Origin: Cordylochernes scorpioides
Taxonomy: Eukaryota; Arthropoda; Arachnida; Pseudoscorpiones; Chernetidae
Length of the DNA stretch: 64,000 bases
Assembly: GCA_030710605.1 (NCBI GenBank)
Contig: CP092870.1
Span: 12,047,408 to 12,111,407 of the forward strand
Reading direction: 5' to 3'
Shown here: in pieces, positions 8,110 to 61,288 of the stretch
How positions within the stretch are numbered: position 1 is the stretch's first letter
How the letters are laid out: every line of letters starts with the position of its first letter
The notes under the pieces: model-generated
Told to the model about the DNA's origin: nothing
Database searches by the model: none
Seen by the model: only the letters and a program-made list of their open reading frames with translations
Program-made: the position numbers and the translations under genes

Positions 8110-8205
8110 TATTTTTAAGGAGAAATAACGATTATTTCTAGCCTTAGGGATGAAATATGATAGAATGAATTGTGAAGAGTAATGATAAAAGGAAAAATAA
8201 AAGTG

Positions 8206-8277: not shown

Positions 8278-8281
8278 CATG

Positions 8282-9248: not shown

Positions 9249-9592
9249 TGTTGCACCAGGCTGCGGCTTGGCAGACTCTTCAGCCTTGATTCTCTCCTGT
9301 GCTGGGTCTTGCATCTTACCAGAGCGTGTTTCAACCATCCTACAAATTTATAAAAGGGAATAATGAGATAAGTCTACTTTTAGTAGCCTCCAGAATCCCT
9401 TATTTATTTTTTCACATCAAAGAGAGCAGTGAAGTCACACGTGTACCTAAATACAAATAATGACAATCTAAATAATCTGTGTTTTAAATAAATATCATAG
9501 AATATTTTATATAAAAATAAATAAATATATAATTTAAATTTCAAATATATTAAAAATAATATAAGAAATACGCCATTAATCATGATGTAACA
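9249..9592 (-). repeat. 3' LTR of the gypsy element
   Basis: Identical to 14099-14442 except about one base. The pol stop codon lies inside it (9576-9578). The polypurine tract, AGAGGGGGAGG on the minus strand (9593-9603), lies directly upstream and is part of the pol coding sequence. Confidence 0.95.
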
Positions 9593-15284: not shown

Positions 15285-15520
15285 TATTATAAAACGACAT
15301 TTGAAAATTATCCCGAATGTGTTTCTTTTGAACGAAAAATCAAAATTTATTCCTAGGAGAAATAACGATTATTTCTAACCTTAGGGATGAGGTATGAAAG
15401 GATGAATTGTGAAGAGTAATGATAAACGGAAAAATAAAAGTGTCCAGAGATGGGAATCGAACCCACAGTGTCCCGCTTACCGGGCAGATGTCATGTCCAC
15501 TAGGCTACCCTGGACATATT
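15285..15520 (-). repeat. tRNA-headed SINE family 1, copy B (uninterrupted)
   Basis: The same body and the same tRNA-Thr(GGT)-like head (15443-15514 on the minus strand) as 7760-8281, without the MITE. It supplies the empty-site sequence that proves the nested insertion in copy A. The acceptor stem has one mismatch (TCCAGAG). Confidence 0.75.
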
Positions 15521-16799: not shown

Positions 16800-18217
16800 C
16801 ACTGCGTGACATTGAAAATGGAACACCAAGAAATAGTGGCCAGAAAGTGATGAAACTCGGCAGACAGAGAGAGACAGGGACGAACAATAAGTGATCTTTA
16901 TTTCAAAATGATACTCATAATACAGAGCTAGAACGGCGTCGGCTTAGTAGCAAGTAGGACCACCGCGGACGGCGATGCACGCAGCAACACGTCTAGGTAG
17001 AGAGTCAATCAGAGTACGGATGGCGTCCTGAGGGATGGCTCTCCATTCCCTCTCAACCATTTGCCACAGTTCGTCTTCTGAACGCGGCTGTGGCAAGGCA
17101 TGCAAACGGCGTCCAATGATGTCCCAGACGTGCTCGATTGGTGAGAGATCAGGAGAGTACGGTGCCCAGGGAAGCATCTGTACATCTTGCAGAGCTTGTT
17201 GGCTAATGCGAGCAGTGTGCGGTCGGGCGTTATCCTGCTGATAAAGGGCATTGGGTACCCCCTGAAGGTAGGAGAGTGTCACCGGTCGCAGCACATCATC
17301 AACGTATCGTTGGGCCGTCATAGTGCCCTGAATACGAAGTAAAGGTGACCTGGAATCATACGCGATTGCGCCCCAAACCATGATTCCACGTTGTCGCACG
17401 GTGGGGCGTTCCACAATTGCTGCCGGATTGGACCTTTCTCCACGTCGACGCCACACGCGTACACGGCGACTATCACTGGACAAGCAGAAACGCGACTCAT
17501 CTGAGAACACGACCCTGTGCCATTCCGTCATCCACGTCGATCTAGCCCGGCACCATTCCAAACGTTGGCGCCTATTCGGTGGGGTCAATGGCAGTCTTCT
17601 TAGCGGACGGCATGAGTGCAAGCCATTAGCAACCAATCGACGGGAAATGGTTCTGGTCGAGATGGAATGATCTAGGGTGTCTTGCACATGTTGCAGGATG
17701 GCGGTACAAGTGGCTTGTGGGGCCGCCACTGCTTGTCGAAGGATACGCCGATCCACACGTGCTGACGTCACTCTGGTTGCACCGACATTCCTATAAATTG
17801 CCACATTTCCTTGTTCCAACCATCTTCTCCACAGTCGGTGCACCGTGGACGCACCAAGGACGCATCAGCTGCGATTTGACGTATGGACCAACCTGCCCTT
17901 TTCAGTCCGATCACCATGCCCCTCGTAAAAGCGTCTGTCTGCTTGAACTGCCTCCGTTTACAATGACCTGGCATTCTCTGTTATTACACGTGTCTTTTGA
18001 CACAAGAACAAAATTTCTACAATGATTTTCCTTGAAGAAATAACGACACGAATACTGTCCTTTCTGCAAGTTCCTTCCCTTATATCTTACTCCATGTGCG
18101 CACGAGAGCTGCGCATTTTACATCATTTGCATAACTCGGTTAGGCGCGTCTACCCTGAAATTTGCATAATTTTCTGGCCACTATTTCTTGGTGTTCCATT
18201 TTCAATGTCACGCAGTG
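16800..18217 (-). mobile_element. Tc1-like DNA transposon, 1418 bp, complete ends
   Basis: Inverted terminal repeats of about 46 bp (CACTGCGTGACATTGAAAAT at the left; its complement at 18172-18217) are flanked by TA (16798-16799 and 18218-18219). The repeats look perfect by eye. It holds a single transposase gene on the minus strand with one frameshift. Confidence 0.92.
16944..17974 (-). pseudogene. Tc1-like transposase with a single frameshift
   Basis: The N-terminal part (17974 to about 17855) carries a helix-turn-helix-like segment, FTRGMVIGLKRAGWSIRQIA. The remainder (frame 17843-16944) holds RTISRRLVANGL, the first catalytic Asp in FSDESRF, the second in YQQDNARPHTA and the Glu in SPDLSPIEHVW, and ends GGPTCY. 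The two parts are in different frames; an apparent one-base deletion near 17855 joins them. I count 32 residues between second Asp and Glu rather than the usual 34. The family cuts and pastes DNA at TA sites. The near-intact state suggests recent activity, but this copy is dead as sequenced. Confidence 0.88.
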
Positions 18218-18884: not shown

Positions 18885-19165
18885 AATATATTCCGTCTAT
18901 TGACTGTCTCGCAAACCGGCGGACTCAGGTCGGTGACAAAGCCACAATACCAGCTTTAGTAAACTTTAGTTTAATGGCCCTTGTCAGTCCAGGGAGGGCT
19001 TTATTCCATGAGATTCATAAGGGATATAATGAAATATTCACAATCTTCCAAAGAGATGTTTATCTCGCAAAGTGGCTAGGCCATATTTATGACTTAAATA
19101 TAGATGTAAATTTTGCCGGAAGGATGTTTATCTATAAAAATATAAAGGTCACCTCTCCCGTGAAA
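18885..19165. repeat. Repeat family F (MITE-like), copy 1
   Basis: It ends in AAGGTCACCTCTCCCG (19145-19160), the family's terminal motif, and shares internal blocks (ACCAGCTTTAG, CATAAGGGA) with 58805-59080 and more weakly with 19795-20058 and 45670-45823. Confidence 0.5.
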
Positions 19166-19176
19166 ATATATAATTA

Positions 19177-19410
19177 CTAGCCGAATGACCCGGGCAACGC
19201 CCGGGTTTTACTCGATTAAATGCTTTTATTCAAATACTATTCGTTACAATTATAAATTGGCGCCGTGGATGTCATTCTTGTATAATATATAAATAAGTTT
19301 TAAAAATTGTAAAAAAAAAAAATGCATCGGCCGGGAATAGAACCCGGACCGCCCGCGTGGCAGGCGAGCATTATACCACTGAACCACCGATGGTTATGAG
19401 AAATGGCCAT
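19177..19410 (-). mobile_element. Helitron 3' half carrying a tRNA-Gly(GCC) copy
   Basis: On the minus strand the sequence ends with hairpin CCCGGGCGTTGCCCGGG, then TCATTCGG and CTAG (19180-19177) followed by T. Upstream are a tRNA-Gly-like sequence and the same A-rich/T-run spacer as in the Helitrons at 29602 and 55703. Its 5' end was not located. Confidence 0.6.
19323..19393 (-). pseudogene. tRNA-Gly(GCC) copy, mutated
   Basis: Cloverleaf with anticodon GCC, but the T-loop reads TTCTATT instead of TTCGATT and the first acceptor pair is C-C. It lies within a Helitron, with a run of T directly downstream. Probably a non-functional captured copy. Confidence 0.8.
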
Positions 19411-19794: not shown

Positions 19795-20058
19795 GCATGA
19801 ATATGGCCTAACTATCTTGCCAGCTCTTTGGCAGAATGTTAAGATTTCATTTGATCCCTTGTGGATCTCACGGAATAAAGTCCGCCCTAGACTGACGAGG
19901 ACCATTGCCCGAAAGCATAGTCTCTAGGTGGACGCTTCACAGTTTGACAAACCTTCTGTTGTAGCTTTGTCATCGACCTAATCCCCTAGTTTGCGGAGGC
20001 GGTAAATAGATGGTGTCTAGTTTTAACGTCTATTTTGACAGGAGAGGTTCCCTTTATT
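19795..20058. repeat. Repeat family F-like, diverged copy
   Basis: It ends with a GACAGGAGAGGTTCCCTTT block, the complement-like form of the family's terminal CACCTCTCCCG motif. Boundaries are uncertain. Confidence 0.35.
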
Positions 20059-20183
20059 TTATAGATTAATATCCTTCAAGGAAAATTATGATATAGAAAT
20101 ATAGTCTTTTTGAAAATTTGTATTTGAAATTTTTTTTAAATACATTTTTAAAATTGAATATGTACTTGCACTGAATAATTATA

Positions 20184-21168: not shown

Positions 21169-21697
21169 TTAATATGTCATATAGCTATATTTTGCGTGTA
21201 GATATAATTTTAAAGTAGACAGTTAGAGAGGATAAAGTTTGGTTGGGTTTACCTCTCCTCGCGTCTATTTTTTTCAACGCGACAATATAAACATTCGAGA
21301 TAAACAGGGAAAGGCGAATTAATCGATAAAAAAAATAGAATTAACTCCTTTAGAGTAAGTAACGAAAATATCACAAAATCAAAATGAATTAATAACAGAA
21401 TATTTTTATAGAAAGATGAGAATTATAATTTTGTGGAACTCTACATCAATATCTTAATCACTAAATGAGACCGAAATATAAACTTTGCGCAACGGTCACC
21501 TTGATATCAACCTTCAATGTGGTGTTATCCATGGCCACCAAAATAGCAAACAACTTGAGCAACTGCCAGTGTCAATCACTCACAAGCTAACAGTTCCTAA
21601 CACCCAGTAGCTCCTAATCCTCCAGTATTTACAAAACATTCCTTATTACGAAAAATAAAGGAGCATTTTCTTATCGTACAACTAAATGTTGTTGATA
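21169..21697. other. Unassigned AT-rich DNA
   Basis: Contains a GGTTGGGTTTACCTCTCCTC block near 21240 resembling the family F end; otherwise nothing recognised. Confidence 0.25.
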
Positions 21698-21823
21698 GCT
21701 TGCGCCATCTATCGTAATAAATATCAACTATACGTTAAATTTTAATTATTCCAGAATTTACCAAATACCCATTCTTGATTTATCAACGAATAGTTTATAT
21801 TTATTCCGATAGATGGCGCAAGC
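21698..21823. repeat. 126-bp palindromic MITE
   Basis: Inverted arms of about 37 bp, starting GCTTGCGCCATCTATCG (left) and its complement ending GATAGATGGCGCAAGC (right, one mismatch), bracket a short AT-rich centre. Both arms contain the GCGCCATCTA motif discussed in the findings. Confidence 0.7.
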
Positions 21824-22039
21824 CATCTGCAACTTTCAGCTTCACGATAAGGATATGCCCTTCCTTTTTGCTTCTTTTATACACCTTATCCCAGTACAAT
21901 ATCAAATTTTGTACTATGCTCACACCATTCCACATTACGTTACAATCAACAATAACCCTCCCTGCCATAAATCGAGGATATTTCATCTATTTTACTATTA
22001 AAGATTGCGACAAAATAACACAGTTCTTTTTTTTTAATA

Positions 22040-23079: not shown

Positions 23080-23330
23080 AGAAAACAGTGGATCAGAAAT
23101 CAATTAAACGTTGATTTAGCCTGTTCTGTGATATTTGGCCAACCCATTTTCTTGACAAATGAATAAAAGCCAACCACGAACGCGTTTCAGGCTGTTGGCC
23201 CACGTCACCATGGTACAGACTGTAACTCTACGACCAAAAATATTTTGGTCCCAGAAGTTTATTGAGAAATCAAGAAATGGGTATTAAAGGCAAAACTCGC
23301 GTAAATACACTAAACACGTGTGAAAAAATA
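23080..23330 (-). repeat. Hammerhead repeat family E, decayed copy
   Basis: Matches the ribozyme repeat at 57325-57615. The hammerhead region (about 23174-23211, minus) keeps GAAACGCGTT and a paired stem II (GGGC/GCCT), but the CTGACGA core is mutated (read GTGACGT). It directly abuts the Helitron start at 23332. Confidence 0.7.
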
Positions 23331-29601: not shown

Positions 29602-30444
29602 TCTACTTATATATTTGCCTTATTCTGTCTGTTTGTTTGTCTGTCTGAAGCTCACGGATGGGATTTTTCATAACCATCGGTGGTTCAGTGGTAGAATGCT
29701 CGCCTGCCACGCGGGCGGCCCGGGTTCGATTCCCGGCCGATGCATTTTTTTTTTTTTTTACAATTTTTAAAACTCATTTATATATTATACAAGAATGACA
29801 TCTACGGCGCCAATTTATAATTGTAACGAATAGTATTTGAATAAAAGCATTTAATCGGGTAAAACCCGGGCGTTGCCCGGGTCATTCGTATGTAATAATT
29901 GTATAAACGAATGCAAGACAAAATCACCGCGAATGTTTCTTTTTTTTTAAGGCAATTTCTTTTTAAGGCAATTATCGTTATTTATCGTTAATTTTTGTTT
30001 CGATTTTATTGAAAAAAAAACGATATTGTGCCTTTAAAAAATGATCTTTATTACTATGCAGTTTTCTATTTAGTCAATATACCTAAGTTCATGTTGCAAA
30101 TATAATTATCTCTATCGATTTAGTAGGTGAAATGCACAAAAAAAAAATCGACATGATGAAATCTTTATGAAAATTCACATTTTTATTTTTATATTTTCAA
30201 GACACACACAGTTTGGGGCGGGACGTTTCACAAGAGAGACATCCACGGCGCCAATTTATAATTGTAACGAATAGTATTTTAATTAAAACATTTTAAAAAC
30301 ACACAGTTTGGAACGGGACGTTTCACAAGAGTGACATCCATGGCGCCAATTTATAATTGTAACGAATAGTATTTGAATTAAAACGTTTTTAAAATATATG
30401 CGCACTCAGGTAAAACCCGGGCGTTGCCCGGGCCATTCGTCTAG
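29602..30444 (+). mobile_element. Helitron, 843 bp, with a captured tRNA-Gly and an apparent read-through 3' end
   Basis: Begins A-TCTACTTATATATTTGCC, like 23332. A terminator-like hairpin (CCCGGGCGTTGCCCGGG) occurs at about 29866-29882, but its CTAG is altered (ATTCGTATG). The sequence continues with two more copies of the subterminal block CGGCGCCAATTTATAATTG and ends in an intact hairpin plus CTAG at 30441-30444, followed by T. A tRNA-Gly-like gene lies at 29674-29744. Confidence 0.75.
29674..29744 (+). tRNA. tRNA-Gly(GCC)-like gene inside a Helitron
   Basis: All arms are present: TGGTTCAGTGGTAGAATGCT (A-box), GCCTGCCACGC (anticodon GCC) and GGGTTCGATTCCC (B-box). Only the first acceptor pair is mismatched (C-C). 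A long T-run, a Pol III terminator, follows immediately. Transcription is plausible; whether the product is processed and charged cannot be told. Confidence 0.7.
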
Positions 30445-31049: not shown

Positions 31050-34000
31050 TCATTTAACTGCTTCCCAGTCATATATTGTTAGTGCTGCAAGTTTTCGAGA
31101 AACTTTATTCAGTGCAAAAGTGATATCGGTTCTTGTTAAGCAGCTCAGATGCATCAGACTACCATTCGCTTCACGAAAGGGAACATTTTCTAGAATCTCT
31201 GCTTCCCCAGGAACAGTAGAATTATCAGTTGGTGTTCCCACTTTATTCGCTTGAGACATATTGAATTTCTCAAGAATTCTTTTTATATATGCCTTTTGAT
31301 TTATAAAGATTGACCCATCCTGTTGCCGCTCTATCTCAATACCCAAAAAGTAATTTAATGGTTCACTTGTGATCTTAAATGAAAACATTAGTTCATCAAG
31401 AAATTCTTTGACTTCCTGTTCATTTGTACCAGCAATGATTCCATCATCAACATATATGGCAATAATGAGTAGATGATCATTTGTTTTTCTGAAGAATAAA
31501 CAGGGGTCAGCTGTATTTTCCTTCAGACATCTTTCTTTCATGAAGTTGACTATTTTCTGATTCCAGCATCTTGGTGACTGTTTAAGTCCATAGAGACTTT
31601 TCTTCAATTTCCATACAAGATCTGTTCCATTGTTGAATCCTTCAGGTTGTTTGATATAAATTTGATCTTGTAAGTCTCCATAGAGAAAGGCTGTCTTTAT
31701 GTCAAACTGTACCAATTTTAAGTCTTCATTAGCAGCAATTGCTAAAAGAGTTCTTATGGTGTCATGTCTTGCCACAGGACTAAATGTTTCTTCATAATCT
31801 ATACCCTTCTTTTGTGCAAACCCTTTTGCCACCAGTCTTGCCTTATATCTTGTAATCTCTCCTTTAAAATTCAATTTGGTTTTTAATACCCATTTACAAT
31901 CAATTGGTTTTTGGCCAGGTGGTAATGTTGTGCATTCGTATACATCATTTTCCGTTAAAGAATTCATTTCTTCATTCATTGTTTCTTTCCAAAATTGTGC
32001 ATTTGGAGAATCCATTGCTTCTTTGTATGTCTTGGGTTCAAGACCTTCTGCAATATTTATTTCAGCATCAATATACCTTTGAGGTTTTGATATATTTGAT
32101 CGATCTCTTAGATTGTATACGTCTGATGTTTGAACATTGCTTTCAATTTTCTCAATATCTTGAGTATCATTTTGTTCATCAATCTGATTACTTGAAAGTT
32201 CCTTATTTCTCTTTTCAATATCAAGGCTAAATGTTGGTATAGTTTCCTTGAATATTACATCCCTACTTGTGACAACTTTGTTTGAGTTCGGCATCCAGAT
32301 TCGATACCCATCCTTGTTACTGCAATAACCAACTAAAATACCTTTTTCGCTTTTGGCATCTAACTTTCTTCTCTTTTCATCAGGCACATGAACAAAACAT
32401 TCAGTTCCAAATATTCGAAGATGATCAACTGCTGTTTTTTTATCAAACCATAGTTCATAAGGTGTCTTTCCCTCAATTTGTGTTGGTCCTGTTCTATTCA
32501 AAACATATGTAGCAGTATTAACTGCCTCTGCCCAAAGCTTTAGGCTCATATTTTTGGCATATATCATTGAACGAGCTGCTTCTATTAAAGTCCTGTTTTC
32601 CCTTTCCGCTGAACCATTCTGTTGTGGAGTATATGGCATTGTGATCCTATGATTAATACCACACTTGTTTGTAATTTTTGAGGTTTCTTTATTTACAAAC
32701 TCCTTTCCTCCATCTGTGAGAATTTCTTTCACTATATGTCCAGTAGTCTTTGTTTCCAAGAGAAATTGTTCTAGCTTTTCAATGACTTGTGACTTTTCTT
32801 TTAGGAAATACACTGATCGGTATTTTGTAAAATCATCTTTGAAACACACAAAGTATCTCATCCCTCCTTTCGAAACCTCCTGCATAGGGCCACATACATC
32901 TACATGAATTAAGTTTCCAGGTTGAGTAGAAGCATATTGTTCTCTTGATCCAAAACTCAGTCTATGTTGTTTGCCATAAATGCATGCCTCGCAAGGTTCA
33001 TTGTCCATGACTGCATCTATTCCTTGTTCTTTAAGCCATTTTTGAACATGCCTTTTATTTTGATGTCCAAATATTTCATGCCATAGTTGTAGCATATTGA
33101 CATTTTGGGTTTTGGCTAAATTGACTTCTGCAGCATTTTCAGGTTTGATACTTGTTATTAACATACCATGCAAGCCTCCTGGTAGTCTTTTCCCTTCTAT
33201 AATAACTTCTCCAGTTGTTGTCTTAAAAAGTTTACAACCTTTTTTATCCATTTTCATTTCAAACCCTTTATCCAATGTGGACTGTAATGACATCACATTA
33301 CGACTGAAATTGGGAACATACCATACATCAGTTAGGTAGTGAGTTTGCCATTTACCTTTTACACAAGTTTCAATTGTTATAGTTCCACTTCCATAAGCTA
33401 TCAATTTTTCATTACTTCCAACTTTAACAGTCTGTTGGGTAGGAAAATCCTTATAAGAAGTATAAAAACTTGCATTTCTTGTAATGTGGTTAGTAGCTCC
33501 TGAGTCACCAATCCAAATGTCTTCATCTTGTTCATTGAATCTTTCACTGATTAAACTTTCACTTAATTTTGAATTAAGTTTTAATTTAGTTTCATCCTTT
33601 TCTTTTTCCTTTAGTTTCTTCTGTTTTGCATACCTACAATCTTTGGCCAAGTGTCCTTTTCTATGACAAAAGTAACATTCTCTTGTTTCTCTTGTTTTCT
33701 GAAAATTTTCATTACTTTTGGTAACTTTTCCTTTCATATTTTGCTTATTTTCATATGCATTTGCCATTAGTGCTGTCGAACTTGATGCGCTGCATTCATC
33801 TCGCTGTTGAATTCTTATTTCGAGTAACCGAAGCCTTTGTGTGAGATTGTCTACAGAACGTTCTTCTTTAGACACTGATTCCCAAACACTTTTAAAATCA
33901 AAATATTCATCAGGCAAGGTGTTTATGATTCTGCACATCAGCATGGATTCTGGCAATTTCAAATTTTCTTGTTTAGTAAGTTCATTTTGCATATCATTCC

Positions 34001-34451
34001 ATAAACTTTCTAATTTTGAAATGTGCTTTGAAATATCATCTGTAGGATCCTTCTTAAAATTAAAGAATTGATTATAGAGCATGTCTAATCTTTGACCAGA
34101 GCTTTGCTCATAGACACTTAACAATTTGTCCCACATATCTTTAGCACTTGAGCAGGGAATGATTAGTTGACTTACATCAGGCATCACACTTGTTGTAAAT
34201 AGCAATTGGGATATTGCATCTTCACTTTCCCATTTTACATATGCCTCTTTTTCTTCATTTGTTTCTTGTTTTATTGGCTTTCTATATGTTCCATCAACAA
34301 CGCCTATTACTTTGTTTATTGTTAAAAGCAATTTTATATTTTTCTTATATTCTGGACAGTTTATTAATCCTTCCAATTTGGGAATATTCATACCCATTTT
34401 AATATTATCCATTCCAGCCATTGCTAATATAAATTTTGACGTGATAAACAA
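31050..34451 (-). CDS. Copia Gag-Pol polyprotein, C-terminally truncated
   Basis: 1133 codons. In order: Gag with a Retrotran_gag/UBN2-like region; a CCHC knuckle CYFCHRKGHLAKDC near 260; aspartic protease WIGDSGATNHI near 315; integrase zinc motif H...H...CEAC about 465-495 and a core with HVDVCGPM and TPQQNGSAERENRTL; reverse transcriptase with YKARLVAKGFAQ and catalytic YVDD near 998. It ends DWEAVK with TGA where homologues continue into RNase H. Beyond the stop a few codons read IFKYL and then the frame jumps to the natural end of the family protein, indicating an internal deletion. Typical copia polyproteins are about 1400 residues. The start at 34451 is the first in-frame Met near the primer site; an internal Met, beginning MAGMDN, is also possible. 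Confidence 0.92.
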   Translation of the reverse strand: MFITSKFILAMAGMDNIKMGMNIPKLEGLINCPEYKKNIKLLLTINKVIGVVDGTYRKPIKQETNEEKEAYVKWESEDAISQLLFTTSVMPDVSQLIIPCSSAKDMWDKLLSVYEQSSGQRLDMLYNQFFNFKKDPTDDISKHISKLESLWNDMQNELTKQENLKLPESMLMCRIINTLPDEYFDFKSVWESVSKEERSVDNLTQRLRLLEIRIQQRDECSASSSTALMANAYENKQNMKGKVTKSNENFQKTRETRECYFCHRKGHLAKDCRYAKQKKLKEKEKDETKLKLNSKLSESLISERFNEQDEDIWIGDSGATNHITRNASFYTSYKDFPTQQTVKVGSNEKLIAYGSGTITIETCVKGKWQTHYLTDVWYVPNFSRNVMSLQSTLDKGFEMKMDKKGCKLFKTTTGEVIIEGKRLPGGLHGMLITSIKPENAAEVNLAKTQNVNMLQLWHEIFGHQNKRHVQKWLKEQGIDAVMDNEPCEACIYGKQHRLSFGSREQYASTQPGNLIHVDVCGPMQEVSKGGMRYFVCFKDDFTKYRSVYFLKEKSQVIEKLEQFLLETKTTGHIVKEILTDGGKEFVNKETSKITNKCGINHRITMPYTPQQNGSAERENRTLIEAARSMIYAKNMSLKLWAEAVNTATYVLNRTGPTQIEGKTPYELWFDKKTAVDHLRIFGTECFVHVPDEKRRKLDAKSEKGILVGYCSNKDGYRIWMPNSNKVVTSRDVIFKETIPTFSLDIEKRNKELSSNQIDEQNDTQDIEKIESNVQTSDVYNLRDRSNISKPQRYIDAEINIAEGLEPKTYKEAMDSPNAQFWKETMNEEMNSLTENDVYECTTLPPGQKPIDCKWVLKTKLNFKGEITRYKARLVAKGFAQKKGIDYEETFSPVARHDTIRTLLAIAANEDLKLVQFDIKTAFLYGDLQDQIYIKQPEGFNNGTDLVWKLKKSLYGLKQSPRCWNQKIVNFMKERCLKENTADPCLFFRKTNDHLLIIAIYVDDGIIAGTNEQEVKEFLDELMFSFKITSEPLNYFLGIEIERQQDGSIFINQKAYIKRILEKFNMSQANKVGTPTDNSTVPGEAEILENVPFREANGSLMHLSCLTRTDITFALNKVSRKLAALTIYDWEAVK

Positions 34452-39938: not shown

Positions 39939-40496
39939 TCTACGTTTTCGTGGCCTGAATTTAGCACTACTTGCCATTTTCTTGCATATATGTAGCACTA
40001 CGAGCTTCATGCCTAGACCCCAGAATATCTCTTACACGGTGATAATGAAAGTTTACCAATGGAACATCTTGTCGGATATTCATTTTTCACGTTGAAATGT
40101 AAACTAAAATATGTTTAATAGACTAAAGGGAAAAGATATCCGCATTGCCACGTTTTAAGAATATTTCATCATGTAATTTTAACAGAAAACAGAGGTAAGT
40201 GTACATATTCGAATAAATTAAATGGATTACAAGTAGTGAGAATGAACATTTCCTCCTTCCATAGACCGGCCATCAGGTGCAAGAACTAAAGGTTGTTCAG
40301 GCTTATGGGCACACTACAAACATTTACATGGAATGTGAAAGTCTCACATGGATCAACTGAGATATTGGGGAACACACAAGCTTGTACTAGCCCTACACCT
40401 CTCAACTTCCGTACTCACCGCGCACAAACATGCGTCGTTGATAATTCTTCTACACATTACATATTTACATATTAAAAACAATAGAGAAAAATTAAA
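39939..40496. other. Unassigned DNA
   Basis: Nothing recognised. Confidence 0.3.
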
Positions 40497-40828
40497 AACC
40501 TGACCCACTTATTTTTGATTTTTTCTATTGTTTTTTCATGTTTTAAGCGTATTTACGCAAATTTGGCCTTAAATACCCATTTCTTGGTTTCTCAAGAAGC
40601 CTCTGGGACCAAAAATCTTTTTGGTCGCAGTGGTACAGCCTACTCCACGCTGACGAGCGCCAACAGCGCGAAACGCGTTCGTGGATGGCTTTTCTTGATT
40701 TATCAAGAAATTGGGTTGGCCAAATATCAGGGAACAGGCTAAATCAATGTTTAGTTGATTTCTGTTCCACCAGATGGCACTCTGCCTTCTGTAAAGCACA
40801 TGTGCTCCTGGTCAGGATAGGCTCTCTT
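40497..40828 (+). repeat. Hammerhead repeat family E, copy with intact ribozyme
   Basis: A repeat of about 300 bp bounded by CCTGACCC (left) and GGTCAGGA (right), with blocks TTAAATACCCATTTCTTGG, TTGATTTATCAAGAAATTGG and CACCAGATGGC. It codes for nothing and carries a hammerhead ribozyme at 40644-40685. Other copies: 57325, 60197, 60650 (truncated), 23080 (decayed). Confidence 0.85.
40644..40685 (+). ncRNA. Type I hammerhead ribozyme
   Basis: Stem I TCCACG (40644-40649) pairs with CGTGGA (40680-40685); core CTGACGA (40650-40656); stem II GCGC/GCGC around loop CAACA; core GAA then A at 40670-40673; palindromic ACGCGT forms a minimal stem III with U16.1; the cleavage site follows T40679 (GTT). 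Every core base of the hammerhead consensus is present. The ACGCGT palindrome would also allow dimerisation through stem III, as described for Penelope-like element ribozymes. Confidence 0.82.
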
Positions 40829-41399
40829 TATTTTTAATATTTACATATGTGAATTCATGCACATAATCCTTACATTCATTTTGTATTGGAATATTTTCAT
40901 TCTTTCAATATTTCGTGTGGCTATACCTGCGCCAAACTCCCTCGAGGAACAAAATTGACTTGGGAGACTGGCGTGGAGTTCTTTATTCAAGCAAACTCCA
41001 AAGTGACCTTTCAAGGAAAGTTTTGTTCGTTGAGGTAGTTTGACGTGCGTATAACCGATTAATTTAACGGATTAATAAAACTATATCGATCCAAGATGAG
41101 CCTTTTTATAATAAATGAATATGGATTGCCACGTTTTAAAACCAAATACATATACAGAGGGTGTTCAATTTTGGAAAGAACGGTTTTGGAACGCTATAGC
41201 TGGCGAGAGAAGCGCGCGATTCAAGTGATATTTATTTATTCGAAAGAAGAAGCATTGATTTATATTTCATGGAAAATCGATTTTTAAATATTCGAAACGC
41301 CGAAAATTATGAGTGACTTTGTAAAAAATTACGTTTACAGACTTTCCGAGGGGAAAAAATCGTTTATCCTTTTTATTAAAATTATGAAAGAATATTTTT
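40829..41399. other. Unassigned DNA
   Basis: TACAGAGGGTGTTCAATTTTGG at 41153-41174 resembles a mariner terminal repeat (compare 38149) and may be the left end of the following pseudogene. Confidence 0.3.
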
Positions 41400-45520: not shown

Positions 45521-45547
45521 AATAATAACACCTTGCCAAATAATCTA

Positions 45548-45596
45548 TTTTTCTTGACGAGGACAAAAGATATTTTTGTCGAAACGTTGAGAAAAA
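45548..45596 (+). ncRNA. Hammerhead-like relic in another repeat
   Basis: Core TTGACGA (45554-45560, one change from CTGANGA), stem II GACAAAA/TTTTGTC (45562-45580) around loop GATAT, then GAAACGTT. Stem I TTTTTC pairs with GAGAAA with one wobble. A single core substitution (C3) probably inactivates it. A partial relative lies at 44280-44300. Confidence 0.5.
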
Positions 45597-45669
45597 TGAA
45601 ACTTTTTCTAGCCGAAGTGGCTCTTATTTTAAGAAATATGGATGACGGCCAGGCAACTATATCTTCATT

Positions 45670-45823
45670 ATATAAAAAGATAGTCACCTCTCCCGTCAAA
45701 TGGACACAAATATTTTGCGCCATCTATCGACCGACTTTGCAAGCTAGCAGACTCGGGTCAGTGACATAGCCGCAACCTCAGCTTTGGCGTCTACTTTGGC
45801 GGGAGAGGTGACTCTTTTTCATA
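45670..45823. repeat. Repeat family F, short palindromic copy
   Basis: Facing ends AAAAGATAGTCACCTCTCCC and GCGGGAGAGGTGACTC bracket 110 bp, including a GCGCCATCTATCG motif at 45717. It abuts the Tigger-like MITE at 45826. Confidence 0.65.
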
Positions 45824-50296: not shown

Positions 50297-53200
50297 TGTT
50301 GTTGTTGTTGTTTCTTATCCCCTTGTGTAAAGATTACACAAATTCCATGAGTTCATGCTCCTCGAGCTGTTTTATGATGAGCAGCGGCCTCTCCCAAAGG
50401 TCCTGTTTAGTGCATCTAATGCAAGCCAAAATGTGTTCTGGAGCTGAAGGTGCCAAGCTACATTTTGGGCAAGTGGGGTAGATTTTGTTATTATTTTCTA
50501 ACTTCAATGGCTTGAGATGGCCTGTTCTAAATCTTGTTAGTGTTGTTTGATGCTGTCTATTTCTGATGTTCAGAGCTCCTCCTGGGTTCACTCCACTGTA
50601 CCAATTGTGCTTAGGTGGGATCCTCCAGTTCTTGTTTATTTTTGTTTTGGCTACTGTTTCTATTTCTTTAAAAGTAAGTTTATTTTTCTGTGACAAGGGT
50701 TCTTTTGTGCCTTTTTTCGCTAGCACATCAGCAGCTTCATTGCCTTCAATTCCAACATGTGAGGGTATCCATTGAAGGTGAATTTTTGAGGTTTTTGAGA
50801 GTTTTTGGAGATAGCCAATTATGTTCCTGCTTACTTTGTCTCTAAGTTCCCCTGTGTGACTCAAGTGTTGTATGGCACTTCTACTATCAGTAAGAATCCA
50901 GATATCTTGATAACTAGTATTTCTGATGGATTTTAAGGCTTCATAGATGGCTATAAGTTCTGATCTGAAGACTGAGCAAAAATCTGGGTTTCTTCTGTTC
51001 ATTTTCTCAATGCCATTTGTGGTTTTGATGAGACAGCCACTGCCAGTGTGTCCTAGCTCGTCTCTGCTACCATCGGTATAAATAGTTATTGCATTTTTAG
51101 GAATGTTATTAATTATTTCTAATGTTAATTGTTTTAAGTATTCTGCATTTTGGCATTGTTTGTTGGTAGGTGTTAAAGTGGTATTAAAAATAACATTTTG
51201 TAGTGGTTCGCATGGAGAAATTTTTTCTACTAAATAATTTTTTTCTACTTTATATTTTAAAAATCCATTTCTTTTGGCCAGGTGGAGAGGGCCTTCTTTT
51301 TTGAGTCTTAGATTGGATTCCCAATTAAGTATGTAATTGGAAGTTCTGTGTTTGTTTCCATAACTCTTGATTTTGTTTATATATTTTGGCAGATTGTAGC
51401 TTCTTCTATCCTTTAAGGGCATAATGTCTGCCTCGTAAAGTACAATATCATTAGGGCAGGTATTTCGAAGACCTGTAATAATTCTAGCTGCACTTAGTTG
51501 TATCCTTTCCAGTGATTTTAGATTTGTTTCAGATGCTGTACCATAGATTTGATATCCATATTCCAGGATAGGTCTAATTAGAGATGTGTAAGTTAATTTT
51601 AGTGTGGTTGCATCGGCTCCCCACTCTCTTCCTGAAATATATTTCAGGATTTTTAGTCGGTCTTTTCCTTTTCTAATAACTTCTTCAATATGTTTACTGG
51701 AGTTAATTTCTGGATCCAGGGTGTAGCCGAGATATTTAGGATGTTTATTATATTGTAATTGTTGTTCTTTCAGAATAATTTTTGGCCTTATTTTGTATAG
51801 TTTCTTATCGGTAGTAAAAAGACAGGTTTCAGATTTTTGGGGGTTAAATTCTAATTTATGTTTATTAGCAAATTTTTCTAGGTGGAGAAGAGTCTTGTTC
51901 AAATCCCTTTCAGCTTTTTTCCAGTTAGTGTTACTGCTCCATAGAATAATGTCATCAGCGAAAAGTCCAATATTGGTTTTATGTGAATTTTTTTCTTCTA
52001 TGCCTGCAATAAATAGGGTGAAGAGAGTTGGGCTAAGGACTGATTCTTGTGGTAATCCTTGGTACAATTTGAAGGTTTTAGATAGAGTTCCATTATATTT
52101 GACTCTGATGTATCTATTTTTAAGGAAATCATTTATCCAAGTGATAGCTTTTCCATCAATTTTGAAATGCTTGTATAATTTTGTAATTAACTTGTTTTTC
52201 CATACTTTATCAAAAGCTTGTGTAAGGTCTAAAAAAGCAGCTAAGGTGTGGTTAGTTGGTTTTCTGTTTTGTGCATCTTTTACCTTTTGTGTGAAAAATA
52301 AGAGTTGGTCTATTGTCCCATGTCCTTTCCTAAATCCATATTGTTCTTCTGGTAAGAGATTTCTTGTGTCAAGGTGGTAGGTAAGTCGTCTGAGTATAAT
52401 TTTTTCCATTAATTTGCAGCAAATACTTGTGAGGGAGATAGGTCGATAGTTTTTTGGGTCATCAGCAGATTTGTCAAGTTTTTTAATAGGAATTATTGTT
52501 GCAGTTTTCCAGTCTTGAGGCAATTTTCCAGTTTTCCAGGAGTTTTTGAAAATATCAAGAAGTATTTCTTTGCCATTTTTGCCCAAGTTTGATATCATTT
52601 GGCCATGGATTCCATCTGGCCCAGGAGTCTTGTTCAAGTCAGTGTTTTCTAATGCATAATCTAGCTCTTTCATATTGATTTTTTCATGGAAAATATTATG
52701 AGTGCTGGTGAAATTTTTACAGTCATGAATAATCTTTCGGGCCTTTTTTTCAACTTTCTTATCTTTTATTTCAAATTTGATTTTACTACTTATTTGATAT
52801 GAATTACCTAAAAGATTAGCAGCATTTTTGTCATTAGTTGCTGGAGTACCATCTGTATTCTTAATCATATTTGTGTTTTCAGTTTGTGGCTGGGCTCTGT
52901 GAATTTGTTTTGCCAAATGCCAAAGTTTTGTATTTGGGTTTCTTGGGTTCAGGTTTTCACAAGTTTGTTTCCATTTTTCCCTTTTCATATTTACATATAA
53001 CCTTTTTATTTTTGCATTCACAATGTTCAGTTCAGTTCTACAATTTGTTTGGTTTTGGATGCACATTTTTTGTAGTTCATTTCTTTTAGTTATAAGTGTT
53101 TGAATATCTTTTGCCTGGTGTGTATAATTTGGAATCCATTTCTTAATATTACCTCTTGGTATTGAAACTTTGGCTGCTTTAATAATAGTGTTTTTGAAAG

Positions 53201-53373
53201 ATATCTCCAATTTTGTTCCAGATCTTTTATTCTAGTGGGTGCTTTTCTAAAGTCTTCATTGGTGTTTTGCTGGTAAAGATTCCAATTAGCCTTTTTGAAG
53301 TTCCAGAATTTTTCTTTAATTGAGCTGGTTTTGGTCTTGGTGCTAATTTCTATCAATTTCTATCAATTTCTCT
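50297..53373 (-). mobile_element. 5'-truncated LINE (I/jockey-type non-LTR retrotransposon)
   Basis: An RT plus RNase H frame on the minus strand, with (AAC)n-type repeats at its end (50297-50313). The endonuclease domain and ORF1 are missing, and the sequence starts in the region between endonuclease and RT at about 53373. AT-repeats flank both sides (49939 and 53475), which hampers recognition of a target duplication. Confidence 0.85.
50334..53356 (-). pseudogene. LINE ORF2: reverse transcriptase, RNase H and C-terminal knuckle; endonuclease missing
   Basis: The main frame 53210-50334 (958 codons) contains the RT fingers (TPGPDGIHGQMISNL), LAAFLDLTQAFDKVW, GLPQESVLSPTLF and the catalytic GLFADDI near 415; RNase H with IYTDGSRDE near 708 and WIPSHVGIEGNEAADVLA; and a C-terminal CPKCSLAPSAPEHILAC. 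The first 50 or so codons lie in another frame (53356-53090, beginning IEISTKTKTSSIKEKFWNF), so a frameshift occurs near 53215. The RT region itself is open throughout, suggesting a fairly recent insertion. RNase H points to the I/R1 side of the jockey superfamily. Confidence 0.88.
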
Positions 53374-55702: not shown

Positions 55703-56276
55703 CTAGGCGAATGACCCGGCTTCGCCCGAGAAATCCCTTGGGTGCAATTTCCTTCATACTAAAAGTATATCGATAATAAATATTAGAAGTGCCATAGAAT
55801 AGCAATACAGAAGTAACACATAAACTACAGGAAAAAAGTGTGTGTGATGGCAAAAATTGTGTATTATATTAGTGTTTAGGTATTTGATTTAATTAATATA
55901 GTTGATATAATAGTATATATTTATATTATATTTTTTATAAATGAGTTTTAAAAATTGTAAAAAAAAAAAATGCATCGGCCGGGAATCGAACCCGGGCCGC
56001 CCGCGTGGCAGGCGAGCATTCTACCACTGAACCACCGATGCTTTTAAAAAAAAATGGCCATATTTAGGTATTCATTCCATTCCGGATTAGTCCGCGTAAA
56101 AAAAAAGTTCTTCAAATTAAAAAAAGAAATAGCCAAAAAAACTAATCAAAATGCAGCCGAAAATTTCCCTCAGGTTTATAAAAAGCGACATTCAAAATTT
56201 GGTACCAATTGGTTCAGTAGTTTTTGAGTTTATCGCGAAACAGACAGACAGAAATTGACTTTTATATATATAGAGA
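55703..56276 (-). mobile_element. Helitron, 574 bp, carrying a perfect tRNA-Gly(GCC)
   Basis: On the minus strand it starts A-TCTCTATATATATAAAAG, contains CTGTCTGTCTGTTTCGCG, and ends with hairpin CTCGGGCGAAGCCGGG, TCATTCGC and CTAG (55706-55703), followed by T. Both the A/T insertion rule and the hairpin-CTRR end fit Helitrons. The tRNA gene sits in the middle with its T-run. Confidence 0.85.
55971..56041 (-). tRNA. tRNA-Gly(GCC), perfect cloverleaf, inside a Helitron
   Basis: Acceptor GCATCGG/CCGATGC is fully paired, D-arm TGGTTCAGTGGTAGAATGC, anticodon arm CTCGCCTGCCACGCGGG (anticodon GCC), T-arm CCGGGTTCGATTCCCGG, discriminator A at 55971, then a long T-run. As far as I recall this is the ordinary arthropod tRNA-Gly(GCC). 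It could be transcribed by Pol III. Confidence 0.85.
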
Positions 56277-57324: not shown

Positions 57325-57615
57325 GTTAAAGGCAGAGCGCCATCTGGTGAAACAGAAATCAACTATTCATTGATTTAGCCTGTTCCCTGATATTGACCAA
57401 CCCAATTTCTTGATAAATCAAGAAAAGCTATCCACGAACGCGTTTCGCGCTGTTGGCGTTCGTCAGCGTGGAGTAGGCTGTACCACTGTGACCAAAAAGA
57501 TTTTTGGTCCCAGTGGCTTCTTGAGAAACCAAGAAATGGGTATTTAAGACCAAATTTGCGTAAATACGCTTAAGACATGAAAAAACAATAGAAAAAAATA
57601 AAAAATAAAAAGGTC
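57325..57615 (-). repeat. Hammerhead repeat family E, minus-strand copy
   Basis: Full-length match to 40497-40828 on the opposite strand, including AGAGCGCCATCTGGTGAAAC and a terminal GGTCAGG. The ribozyme is at 57431-57472. Confidence 0.85.
57431..57472 (-). ncRNA. Type I hammerhead ribozyme, copy 2
   Basis: On the minus strand: stem I TCCACG/CGTGGA, core CTGACGA, stem II ACGC/GCGC (outer A-C mismatch), GAAACGCGTT. All catalytic core bases are intact. Confidence 0.78.
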
Positions 57616-58804
57616 AGGTGTTATATGTATACTTTCAATTATATTTATAAAGACAATATTTAATTTTGAATAATACTAAATCCGTTGTGGGTGTGGTATA
57701 CGAAAGACGGGAAGACACACACACTGTGGTCTTCCCGCCCTTCGAACCATTCGAGTTTAAGAAGAAGGATCTGCCAGCTTCCATACCAGGCATTCCAGCA
57801 TCCTCCCTCTTAAGAGGCCTCTCGGCTAGGGCCCCGTAGATTGCACGCCAGTCTATCACCATTACCTGCCGTACAACCTTTCCGACTTCATTAGATGACA
57901 TCTTAGATACATTTCACAAGAATCAATATTTATCTTTATATTCATCGTCTGCTGAGAGAAATTTTGGCACATCGCCACATTCCAATGGACGCAATATAGT
58001 CAATTAGATTTATTCTTATTGGGTTTTTATATAATAGCGTCATATATATGTTGAAATATATACAATAGATAGGTGATACAATATATTTACGATATCAATT
58101 GAAGCGATTTTAACGAAGATAGAAGAGTTCAGGGGAATACTAGCGTATAGGTCTGTCAACCTAACATGAAAACTATAAAATGATCAGTTTCTCTGATAAA
58201 AAAGTGTTGGAATATTACAGAGTAACAATGGCTATAGATGAAACTGAGTTTGAAAAGGAACTTGTATGTATATAATGTTTTAGTATTGTTTTCGTTCTTT
58301 TCATGTAGACATATATACCAAGATTTGTTTCATATAATTGCTATTAATAATAAATAATATGTAAAGTTAAATTGGTTACGGATTCATTCTTCTTACTTAT
58401 TTTGATTATATAACAAAAAAGACATTGACTACTGTGACCTACAGTTAGGATTGTCGCTTAATCCCCATTGTTCAATCCTCCTTGGTCTGTTCTGAAAGCC
58501 GTCTAGTCAGACCTAACCGTATATCGACATTGGAAAGCCTAGAAGATCAATTAGATAAATGAGGAAGGGTGGAATGCAGCTCTGCCCTGGGCATGGCCAG
58601 CGGGGATAGTCCCCTGTCTAGCTTATAGCTTCTGTGCACAATTACATCCATTATATACAATTTCTTAATACCTATGTAACTTGAGCCCTTTTGGAAAAAA
58701 TATATAACTCTTTAAAGAGATGGTTCAATACTTTATATTTTAGTGCAGAACAATTTTTGTATAAGAAGGTTTTAATCTTAATCGCCTGATCCATGATATT
58801 CTGT
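57616..58804. other. Unassigned DNA, with a GC-richer patch at 57680-57900
   Basis: The patch has an 88-codon minus-strand frame (57901-57635) with MSSNEVGKVVRQVMVIDWRA near its start and no motif I know; it may be a repeat or LINE relic. The rest is AT-rich. Confidence 0.25.
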
Positions 58805-59080
58805 AAAAAAAATGGCTACCTCTCTGGTAAAAAAAAAAAAACGAAAAAATGATGCGCCATTCTTTTGCTCTTTCTGGATGCTAGAACAATGAGTCGGTGA
58901 GAACACCAGCTTTAGCGAATTCAGTGTGCCAACTTAGTGACCAAGATTTCAGGATATTTATTTCACGAGGTCCATAAGGGACTCAAATGAATTCTCTGAA
59001 TTTGTCAAAGAGGCGTTCAACTGGATATTTTTTTGAGGGGAAATTGTTTTTAAAAAAAGGCCTACCTCTTACGTCAAAAT
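58805..59080. repeat. Repeat family F, copy
   Basis: Internal blocks CACCAGCTTTAGCGAATTCA and CCATAAGGGA match 18885-19165. The ends read TGGCTACCTCTCTGG and GGCCTACCTCTTACG, worn forms of the family end. Confidence 0.5.
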
Positions 59081-59905: not shown

Positions 59906-60196
59906 GATGAAAATATTTATACATCAAGCAGCAGTGGGGTAAAAAAAAATATTTAATATTATTCACTGACAATATTCTCTATTAGACAATATTCAGAAAC
60001 ACGATATGCTGCAACCTATAATCATATCTAAGATATCGGAGCCATTTCAAAGTTTGCTATGGAATCCTGGATCTTATGGTTAGTCCATCTTTTATCTCTC
60101 TATTTTATATATTTATATTATGCATATATTTATCATCATATAATCTTATTTATTCATATATATGTTGAAAATATATAAAATATAAAAATAAAAAGG
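59906..60196. other. Unassigned AT-rich DNA
   Basis: Nothing recognised. Confidence 0.3.
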
Positions 60197-60545
60197 TCAG
60201 GGGTTGGTATTAAAATAATAAAAAAACATATCCTGACCAAGAGCACATTAGCTTTTTTAGATGACAGAGCGCCATCTAGTGGAACAGAAATCAACTAAAA
60301 GTTGATTTGGCCTTTTCCCTGTGATTTTTGGCCAACCCAATTTATTTATAATTCAAGAAAAGTCAACCACGAACGCGTTTCGGTCTGTTGACCCTCGTCA
60401 GCGTGGTGCAGGCTGTACCACTACGTACAAAAGTGTTTTGGTCCCAGAGGCTTCTTGATAAAGCAAGAAATGGGTATTTAAGGCCAAACATCCATAAATA
60501 CGCTGAACATATGTGAAAAAATAATAATAAATAGAAAATATTGTA
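60197..60545 (-). repeat. Hammerhead repeat family E, third ribozyme-bearing copy
   Basis: Same blocks as the other copies, with ATATCCTGACCAAGAGCACA and AGAGCGCCATCTAGTGGAAC near its left edge. The ribozyme is at 60366-60407. Confidence 0.85.
60366..60407 (-). ncRNA. Type I hammerhead ribozyme, copy 3, with compensatory changes
   Basis: On the minus strand: stem I ACCACG/CGTGGT (the sixth pair is A-T here, T-A in copies 1 and 2), core CTGACGA, stem II GGTC/GACC after one extra G (GCGC/GCGC in copy 1), GAAACGCGTT. Core bases are unchanged while both stems differ and still pair. Confidence 0.82.
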
Positions 60546-60649: not shown

Positions 60650-60825
60650 TGCCAACAGCGCGAAACACGTTCGTGGATGGATTTTCTTGATTTATCAAGA
60701 AATTGGGTTGGCCAAAATCAGGGAACAGGAAAAATCAATGTTTAGTTGATTTATGTTTCACCAGATGGCGCTCTGCCTTCTGTAAAGCACATGTGCTCAT
60801 GGTCAGGATATGCCTTTTTTATTTT
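60650..60825 (+). repeat. Hammerhead repeat family E, truncated copy
   Basis: It begins inside the ribozyme loop (GCCAACAGCGCGAAACACG) and continues to GGTCAGGATATGCC. The 5' part including CTGACGA is missing. Contains CCAGATGGCGCTCTGCC at 60761-60777. Confidence 0.8.
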
Positions 60826-60984
60826 TAATATATATATTCATATTTATTTATCTATACATTTATCATTATTTAATTCTATTTTTATAGTATTTACAAAGTT
60901 ATTCACTTTTATATTTACCATTATATAATCTTATATTTTGATATAATAAAGTATTCTCGATCTCAATATCTCTTTCTCTTCTTT

Positions 60985-61085
60985 GTACACGCTTGTTCGG
61001 CGGTACATATACTAAAATTGGAACGACACAGAGAAAATTAGCATGGCCCCTGCGCAAGGATGACACGCAAAATCGTGAAGCGTTC
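60985..61085 (+). ncRNA. U6: U6 spliceosomal RNA-like gene, possibly a pseudogene
   Basis: U6 landmarks are clear: CATATACTAAAATTGGAACG, the ACAGAGA box, AGCATGGCCCCTGCGC and AAGGATGACACGC of the internal stem-loop, and CGTGAAGCGTTC. U6 pairs with U4 and U2 in the spliceosome and forms its catalytic centre. The 5' hairpin is altered (GTAC...GTAC, still paired, with an enlarged loop), and AAGAT after the ACAGAGA box reads AAAAT. After GCGTTC the sequence becomes CT-rich with no TTTT terminator. TATA-like ATATAATA lies at 60941-60948, 37-44 bases upstream. A retroposed or decayed copy is as likely as an active gene. Confidence 0.8.
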
Positions 61086-61288
61086 TCTCTCTCTCTTCTC
61101 TGTGCTCCTCTCTAGTTTCTGGTTCGGACGTGTCTTTCACGAGAGCTTCAAAGAAGACTTCAATCTTCCAACTTGAAAAAATAAGAGATTGCGAAGTAAT
61201 TGTATCAATTTTTATGCATATTTTCATAAAACATTGAAAATTTTTTAATATTCTATTTTTTAAAATAGTTTTCCTCTTTTTTCCAATA

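What the first reader, a model, noticed from the sequence alone, without database searches (positions are those of the whole stretch)
40644..40685. Dispersed repeat with a complete type I hammerhead ribozyme
Stem I TCCACG/CGTGGA, core CTGACGA, stem II GCGC-CAACA-GCGC, GAAA, and a minimal palindromic stem III ACGCGT before the cleavage position fit the hammerhead consensus at every core base. Hammerheads are known from Penelope-like elements and retrozymes; this short, non-coding, dispersed repeat looks like a non-autonomous, self-cleaving retroelement of that kind. No autonomous partner is visible in the window.
Basis: partly seen in the sequence, partly recalled or inferred. Interest (0 to 1): 0.85.

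Follow-up and report, generated by a model that had tools for sequence, protein, structure and literature searches.

The report
Pseudoscorpion hammerhead retrozyme with inverted arms
A short self-cleaving RNA repeat in a pseudoscorpion genome is a small parasitic element whose inverted double-ended copies record how such elements are probably pasted into chromosomes from RNA circles.

Summary
The hammerhead at 40644-40685 is real and every catalytic position fits. A covariance model built only from copies outside the window scores it 98.2 bits; helices covary across 26 distinct copies. It misses Rfam's gathering score (27.9 of 52). The host is the pseudoscorpion Cordylochernes scorpioides. The 364-bp element (40473-40836) lies between perfect 12-bp target duplications.

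It belongs to the known class of animal non-LTR retrozymes: 338-352-nt units, 39,034 strict core matches genome-wide, plus a third family with 11,952.

New is the insertion anatomy. Opposed copies are head-to-head: 336 against 6 tail-to-tail at one spacing. Outer ends fall on two RNA positions about 50 nt apart (68 of 79); inner ends scatter and ignore the ribozyme cut. Units within an array differ by 0-3 nt, opposed arms included where compared (L010, L012). Two-ended target-primed reverse transcription of one RNA circle by a Penelope-like (PLE) enzyme would leave this. Close GIY-YIG pairs are head-to-head too, 11 of 11, and 8 of 20 GIY-YIG loci carry a hammerhead-like motif. Cleavage, circles and the enzyme are inferred.

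The parts
40461..40472 (.). left 12-bp target-site duplication ATATTTACATAT of copy A
   Evidence: exact match to 40837-40848
40473..40498 (-). short inverted stub (minus arm) of copy A, reverse complement of its own T-rich tract near start site S2
   Evidence: 17-nt match at 94%, 40474-40490 against 40519-40535; longer, weaker inverted self-match
40492..40838 (+). retrozyme unit of copy A, about one full turn of the circle (circ 16 to 15), 91% identical to monomer f350
   Evidence: circle mapping
40637..40690 (+). type I hammerhead ribozyme of copy A: outer stem I 40637-40640/40687-40690, internal loop 40641-40643/40686, inner stem I 40644-40649/40680-40685, stem II 40657-40660/40666-40669, palindromic stem III 40673-40678, expected cleavage 40679|40680
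40837..40848 (.). right 12-bp target-site duplication of copy A
57329..57622 (-). copy C, hammerhead 57419-57486 with intact core; one pair lost in stem II and one in outer stem I
   Evidence: its 3' end lies at circ 315, so it does not fit the S1/S2 rule
60177..60521 (-). copy B, hammerhead 60354-60421 with intact core; one stem II and one outer stem I pair lost
60654..60829 (+). partial copy B', head-to-head with B across about 130 bp, cut inside the hammerhead
23088..23328 (-). copy D, decayed; hammerhead core changed (GTGACGT); outer end at circ 298, outside S1/S2
21663..21917 (.). head-to-head remnant of the second retrozyme family (f338), minus arm 21663-21786, plus arm 21782-21917
19841..20090 (+). 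copy of a third hammerhead-bearing repeat, hammerhead core at 19892; further copies at 18885-19037 -, 45667-45789 -, 58786-58995 -
45529..45631 (+). decayed copy of the hammerhead-like stretch found in GIY-YIG (PLE-type) loci; core changed (TTGACGA for CTGACGA)
   Evidence: nhmmer E 2.2e-9 and alignment

Best explanation
This is an animal non-LTR retrozyme: a non-coding 338-352-nt RNA unit with a type I hammerhead. Shown here: the ribozyme fold, the tandem and head-to-head array structure, the two preferred outer end positions, and target duplications in a minority of insertions, in AT-rich DNA. Inferred: a multi-unit transcript cuts itself at the hammerheads, probably pairing two hammerheads through the palindromic stem III; a host ligase closes the monomer into a circle; a Penelope-like (GIY-YIG plus RT) protein nicks both strands of an AT-rich target and uses each 3' end to prime reverse transcription on the circle, at start site S1 on one side and usually S2, about 50 nt away, on the other; going round the circle makes tandem units; the two cDNAs are joined where they stop, which leaves heads meeting in the middle.
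For: Ribozyme: (covariation score 0.255 against 0.134 +/- 0.011 in shuffles, and at most 0.044 when slid). Geometry: 336 head-to-head against 6 tail-to-tail in the same gap range; 10 of 10 opposed tandem arrays under 2 kb in the first 100 listed tandem pairs, two of which look like duplicates of one another; 21 minus-plus and 0 plus-minus simple pairs in the fetched loci after dropping the duplicate loci L002 and L003. Ends: 68 of 79 outer ends in S1 or S2, Rayleigh p about 1e-22; of 17 pairs with both ends classed, 14 are S1/S2 (p 0.013); the class limits were set after seeing the ends. Template read through the cut site: 1 of 79 inner ends within 8 nt of it. One template per insertion: 0-3 differences within arrays, including between the arms of L010 (0) and L012 (3), against 7-24 between arrays of a family. 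Targets: 80% AT flanks against 66%; direct repeats of 10 bp or more that are not pure (TA)n in 14 of 41 insertions against 139 of 1592 swapped flanks. PLE link: GIY-YIG neighbours under 6 kb 11 of 11 head-to-head among the 146 best matches; a hammerhead-like motif in 8 of 20 GIY-YIG loci; a PLE protein cuts and extends both strands, prefers AT-rich targets and has two RT start sites that bound the 'tail' (PMC11167929, main text read); a PLE insert with one inverted pLTR and an optional tail on one side, and head-to-head as the most frequent inverted arrangement (PMC3846280, passages).
Against: No RNA data, so neither cleavage, circles nor expression are shown. Long linear multimers copied from an already uniform array could also give tandem units. 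LINE twin priming also leaves head-to-head inversions. The hammerhead-like motif of the GIY-YIG loci has an extra purine before stem II, shows no covariation (0 of 11 pairs changed on both sides) and no Rfam hammerhead match up to E 1, and it does not resemble the retrozyme ribozyme outside the core. 11 of 79 outer ends are outside S1/S2, including window copies C and D. The S1/S2 split of 14 to 3 is only suggestive. Repeats of 10 bp or more join the flanks of about a third of insertions, and some of them are nearly (TA)n. Two compound clusters (L015, L027) each contain one plus-then-minus neighbour, read here as separate insertions. Fetched loci were partly chosen because they showed arrays; the pattern counts are free of that choice.
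Confidence: 0.72

Rival explanations
1. Same retrozyme, but mobilised by a LINE (for example the RT/RNase H element at 50334-53210) through twin priming, with the Penelope-like elements only bystanders.
For: LINE twin priming also gives head-to-head inversions (recalled); an RT plus RNase H ORF is in the window.
Against: Two preferred start sites about 50 nt apart, an AT-rich target and inverted arms match PLE reports; the genome's GIY-YIG elements show the same geometry, 11 of 11. Copy A ends without a poly(A) tail, at TTTTTA next to the duplication.
Confidence: 0.12
2. Templates are linear multimers transcribed from genomic arrays; no circle is needed and the ribozyme is a by-product.
For: In the PLE of Anolis, ribozyme mutants did not change insertion in vitro (PMC11167929); inner ends ignore the cut site.
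Against: Units of an insertion, and both arms where compared, share one private variant, which asks for a uniform source array in every case; uniform arrays themselves need a rolling-circle or similar step.
Confidence: 0.2
3. A DNA satellite or miniature DNA transposon (terminal CTGACC/GGTCAG) that happens to carry a hammerhead, amplified at DNA level.
For: CTGACC near the start of copies A and C and GGTCAG near the end of A, B and B' look like short inverted termini.
Against: In arrays those motifs are internal and the circle runs through them; insertion ends fall at S1/S2 instead; scattered inner ends, head-to-head bias and target duplications of 10-15 bp are retro-insertion traits.
Confidence: 0.04
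4. Head-to-head arrays are assembly or sequencing hairpin artefacts.
For: L014 and L027 have flanks that are inverted repeats of each other.
Against: Arms differ in length, start site and inner end; 336 against 6 is a head-specific bias that a hairpin artefact would not be expected to prefer; the geometry is seen in three hammerhead families and in GIY-YIG elements.
Confidence: 0.04

Closest known systems
Metazoan non-LTR retrozymes (Cervera and de la Pena 2020, PMC7229834)
   Same: Type I hammerhead in tandem repeats of about 350 nt, low GC, non-coding, thousands of copies, highly self-paired predicted circle, weak palindromic helix III like the salamander motifs.
   Different: Arachnid host; many copies are single-unit with one hammerhead; head-to-head arms and two preferred start sites, which I did not see in the parts of that paper that I read (parts 1-4 of 6; supplement not read).
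Penelope-like elements with pLTR, inverted pLTR and tail (PMC3846280; PMC11167929)
   Same: Head-to-head inverted arm, partial tandems, tail on one side, AT-rich target, short target duplications, priming on both strands.
   Different: Those encode RT and GIY-YIG; this unit encodes nothing. Their hammerheads are described as minimal (PMC7761336, passages); this one has the outer stem I and an internal loop.
Rfam HH9 hammerhead (RF02275)
   Same: Core, stem II and the asymmetric internal loop in stem I align over the whole model.
   Different: 27.9 bits against a gathering score of 52; stem III is one or two pairs and palindromic instead of a hairpin.

Membership tests
Type I hammerhead ribozyme | CUGANGA ... 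GAAA core and NUH before the cut | tested here: met
   CUGACGA, GAAA, GUU in copies A, B and C; copy D has a changed core
Type I hammerhead ribozyme | stems I and II pair and covary | tested here: met
   96.2% of cells paired in 26 distinct copies; stem I UA to AU in 11, stem II CG to GC in 9
Type I hammerhead ribozyme | loop I-loop II tertiary contact | tested here: inconclusive
   internal loop UAC/U and loop CAACA are present, the contact itself was not modelled
Type I hammerhead ribozyme | self-cleavage | not testable with these tools
   no bench data
Type I hammerhead ribozyme | Rfam gathering score (a convention, not a biological feature) | tested here: not met
   27.9 of 52 bits for RF02275; no hammerhead family
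Metazoan non-LTR retrozyme | tandem units of 150-450 bp each with a type I hammerhead | tested here: met
   periods 338-352; 2206 + 2314 pairs at that spacing (a control spacing did not complete); not met by the single-unit copies in the window
Metazoan non-LTR retrozyme | GC below 50%, no coding capacity | tested here: met
   GC 0.39-0.41; longest stop-free run 49-100 aa in tripled monomers, 96 aa in copy A; no Pfam test of these runs
Metazoan non-LTR retrozyme | target duplications longer than 4 bp when present | tested here: met
   12 bp in copy A; 14 of 41 insertions have 10 bp or more against 8.7% of swapped flanks
Metazoan non-LTR retrozyme | expressed as linear and circular RNA | not testable with these tools
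   no RNA data held
Penelope-like element | ORF with telomerase-like RT and GIY-YIG | tested here: not met
   no such ORF in the element; in the genome GIY-YIG ORFs occur and the L034 ORF aligns to P0118, which has GIY-YIG 99-183 and RVT_1 576-760
Penelope-like element | insertion anatomy: inverted arm, tail asymmetry, AT target | tested here: met

The most novel reading that the evidence does not exclude
Animal retrozymes insert by two-ended target-primed reverse transcription on a single RNA circle bound by a Penelope-like protein: each cut strand primes at a different one of two start sites about 50 nt apart, rolling-circle synthesis on both sides makes the arms, and heads are joined in the middle. 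Palindromic arrays, ascribed in one study of Penelope elements to self-priming on antisense RNA, would then be explained without any antisense template.
Probability: 0.5. Interest if true: 0.8.

Novelty: new member of a known kind. Interest (0 to 1): 0.62.

Why it matters
Which enzyme moves animal retrozymes, and whether the template is a circle, has been a proposal (PMC7229834 and PMC7761336 name PLEs as candidates, on shared type I hammerheads, tandem copies and co-occurrence). This genome holds a record of insertions whose ends, arms and uniformity speak directly to both questions, and it gives a template (about 350 nt) and predicted start sites for an in vitro PLE assay. It also offers another reading of the inverted arms that are typical of Penelope elements.

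Tried and rejected
Rfam at gathering level for hammerheads gave nothing. A scan of viral contigs with the ribozyme pattern gave 0, so no relative outside this genome was found; genome contigs was not scanned, since it holds only bacteria and archaea. I first believed that the GIY-YIG loci carry no hammerhead: a loose rule found only a retrozyme copy in L041, and a looser one added two sites in L032 (a mononucleotide-shuffled window gave 2 hits in 20 shuffles). On re-checking, those two sites proved to belong to a conserved stretch with an intact-core motif in 8 of 20 GIY-YIG loci and in L009, L019 and L022. It pairs well (97.3% of cells against at most 52.7% when slid) but is nearly invariant, so covariation says nothing for it, it has one purine too many before stem II, and neither Rfam nor model R1 finds it. 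A DNA-transposon reading from CTGACC/GGTCAG was dropped when the motifs proved internal to the circle. A linear cut monomer as the template was dropped because inner ends do not pile up at the cut and because arrays pass through it. A control for the tandem spacing (gap 270-300), a genome-wide U6 search and a count of the PLE motif were asked for and never answered. PMC4209133 and PMC5785218 are not held, so what they say on minimal hammerheads is taken from PMC7761336 passages. Paper searches: hammerhead with pseudoscorpion, 0 papers; retrozyme with head-to-head, inverted or target site duplication, 12 listed of 2,890; Cordylochernes, 10 listed of 31,551. No report of this anatomy was seen in those listings, which is a limited search.

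Full report
Host. The intact copia polyprotein at 31050-34451 (-) is up to 97-98% identical to proteins of the pseudoscorpion Cordylochernes scorpioides. The genome that holds the window has 24 contigs and 2.62 Gb, and its contig C1 has 223,678,689 bases, the very length given for the contig of a C. scorpioides protein. The window is C8:12047408-12111407.

The ribozyme. All named pieces are present at the stated coordinates. Rfam's best match is HH9, 27.9 bits, E 4.6e-5 in 351 bases, end to end over the model, but below its gathering score. From the loci held and the window, with L002, L003, L004 and L006 left out as duplicates, nhmmer found 69 hammerheads, 58 near full length, 26 distinct. 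On their alignment 96.2% of cells pair; every helix has at least one pair changed on both sides; the covariation score is 0.255 against 0.134 in shuffles and at most 0.044 when the partners are slid. One of the five measures, further pair types, does not exceed the shuffles (163 of 500). Related sequences can beat shuffles without structure, so the slide control and the two-sided changes carry more weight. A model from the 22 non-window copies finds five window copies at 33-98 bits and a sixth, divergent one at 16.3 bits. Stem III can be read as one A-U pair around CGCG, the kind reported for salamanders, where dimers cleave far better (PMC7229834, parts 1-4 of 6 read).

The element. Copy A lies between two perfect copies of ATATTTACATAT (40461-40472, 40837-40848). 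Between them are an inverted stub of about 17-25 nt and one full turn of a unit that is 91% identical to monomer f350. It is 364 bp, 40% GC, and its longest stop-free run is 96 aa. Copies B and C keep the core but each lose a stem II and an outer stem I pair, D has lost core bases, and B' is cut inside the ribozyme.

The genome. The strict core pattern has 19,416 + 19,618 matches and none in the reversed control. Units of 338, 347, 350, 351 and 352 nt occur in tandem, and the pattern repeats at 332-362 nt 4,520 times; a control spacing did not complete. Two diverged families are mapped here (units differ at 122-132 alignment positions). A third hammerhead repeat, seen first at window 19892, has its own stem III palindrome (ACCATGGT) and a GUC triplet in its better copies, 11,952 strict matches, and two neighbouring pairs 319 nt apart in the listed part.

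Orientation. In the loci held 58 clusters were seen: 22 minus-then-plus, 0 plus-then-minus, 20 plus, 14 minus, 2 compound, the latter with one plus-then-minus neighbour each. After dropping L002 and L003, 21 simple minus-plus pairs remain. These loci were partly chosen for arrays, so the genome-wide counts matter more: 336 head-to-head against 6 tail-to-tail with gaps of 220-250. In the first 100 listed places, opposed neighbours under 1 kb are 9 minus-plus and 1 plus-minus, the latter from two different families; for the third family 8 and 0. Opposed tandem arrays under 2 kb in the first 100 listed pairs: 10 and 0, with two of the ten probably duplicates.

Ends. On a common circle (position 1 after GGATATGCC or GGAGATGCC), 36 of 79 outer ends lie at S1 (at most 26), 32 at S2 (45-80) and 11 elsewhere; inner ends spread widely, with a weak peak (Rayleigh R 0.235, p 0.013), and only 1 of 79 lies within 8 nt of the predicted cut. 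The S1 and S2 limits were drawn after seeing the ends. Of 21 simple pairs, 14 have one S1 and one S2 end, 2 have S1/S1, 1 has S2/S2 and 4 have an end outside. L014 (S1/S1) and L027 (S2/S2) have flanks that are inverted repeats, so they may be rearranged; this too was noted after seeing them. The 14 to 3 split has p 0.013, which is suggestive, not strong.

One template. In L009, L010, L011 and L012 units differ by 0-3 nt; opposed arms could be compared in L010 (0) and L012 (3). Different loci of the same family differ by 7-24. The simplest reading is that each insertion was copied from one RNA variant, several times round.

Targets. Flanks are 80% AT against 66% in all held sequence. Direct repeats of 10 bp or more that are not pure (TA)n join the flanks of 14 of 41 insertions, against 139 of 1592 swapped pairs; some of the 14 are nearly (TA)n.

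Machinery. GIY-YIG: 146 matches among 150 scored, out of 17,015 candidates. Two groups are seen in the 20 loci held. In the L029/L034 group the endonuclease leads a long ORF, and the L034 ORF aligns over 96% of its length (31% identity) to P0118, which has GIY-YIG before RVT_1. In the L030/L045 group a hammerhead-like motif lies nearby, in L045 300 nt after the end of the GIY-YIG ORF; 8 of 20 GIY-YIG loci have it with an intact core. Its helices pair in 97.3% of cells but hardly vary, there is one purine too many before stem II, and stem III is just ACGU, so I call it hammerhead-like; RT was not shown for this group. A decayed copy is in the window at 45529-45631. GIY-YIG neighbours under 6 kb: 11 of 11 minus-plus; farther neighbours 33 plus-minus, 28 minus-plus, 28 plus-plus, 22 minus-minus. 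In print, the Anolis PLE cuts and extends both strands, prefers AT-rich DNA, starts inside its RNA at two sites, and the stretch between them is the 'tail' of genomic copies; that paper saw no difference in start site between the two strands and no need for ribozyme cleavage in vitro (PMC11167929, main text). The rotifer PLE paper reports inverted pLTRs, a tail on one side, 8-10-bp duplications and head-to-head as the most frequent inverted form, and proposes self-priming on antisense RNA (PMC3846280, passages). The retrozyme junctions argue against self-priming here, because the two inner ends lie at different circle positions in nearly all pairs (L001 is the exception).

Fold. Circular minimum energies are -112 to -114 kcal/mol for five units; three (f352, f338, f350) were compared with 100 dinucleotide shuffles each, z -6.4, -7.9 and -6.6, and none as low. 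Stems I and II of the hammerhead form inside that fold, but the energy model also pairs part of the catalytic core, so it does not show the active shape.

What is shown and what is inferred. Shown: ribozyme structure, copy number, array geometry, end positions, uniformity, target type. Inferred: cleavage, ligation to a circle, two-ended priming, PLE as the enzyme. The class is known; the insertion record is the new part.

Noticed in passing
L023:27-2535 (-) and L012:1-296 (-): Tandem arrays made of U6 snRNA sequence: in L023 37 matches to the first 65 positions of U6, nearly all at period 66; in L012 three units at period 113. Whether U6 fragments were also copied from circles is open; the genome-wide U6 search did not complete.
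   Followed up: partly
window 60985-61094 (+): U6-like gene at 97.1 bits, beside retrozyme copy B'; a similar AT-rich stretch flanks it and lies between B and B'.
   Followed up: partly
window 19841-20090 (+), L010:2738-2515 (-), L028:5975-5762 (-): Third hammerhead repeat with stem III palindrome ACCATGGT and GUC in the better copies; 11,952 strict matches and 8 of 8 opposed close pairs head-to-head in the first 100 places.
   Followed up: partly
L045:2072-2184 (+), L030:3006-3117 (+) and 992-1103 (-), window 45529-45631 (+): Hammerhead-like motif with stem III ACGU near GIY-YIG ORFs, in 8 of 20 GIY-YIG loci with intact core, one purine too many before stem II.
   Followed up: partly
40767-40784 (AGATGGCA in copy A) and other copies: AGATGGCG is frequent in the retrozyme families (73 sites, 3.0 per kb inside copies; 22 sites, 0.07 per kb outside) and sits in several unrelated repeats; it resembles YY1/CTCF sites as recalled, not tested.
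   Followed up: partly
L015:4549-4990 (-): A 115-nt piece of the f338 unit around the hammerhead repeated three times head to tail, a smaller circle or a later expansion.
   Followed up: no
L013 and L014: Two insertions 12 kb apart share the same inner junction in opposite orientation, and L014's flanks are inverted repeats of each other.
   Followed up: no
window 8203-8278, 15440-15515, 19323-19393, 29674-29744, 55971-56041: Five tRNA-like genes, two Thr and three Gly, possibly repeat-borne.
   Followed up: no
window 9576-14188, 31050-34451, 16944-17843, 50334-53210: By Pfam domains: an LTR-type pol and gag, a copia-type polyprotein, a Tc-type transposase and an RT with RNase H, probably a LINE.
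   Followed up: no
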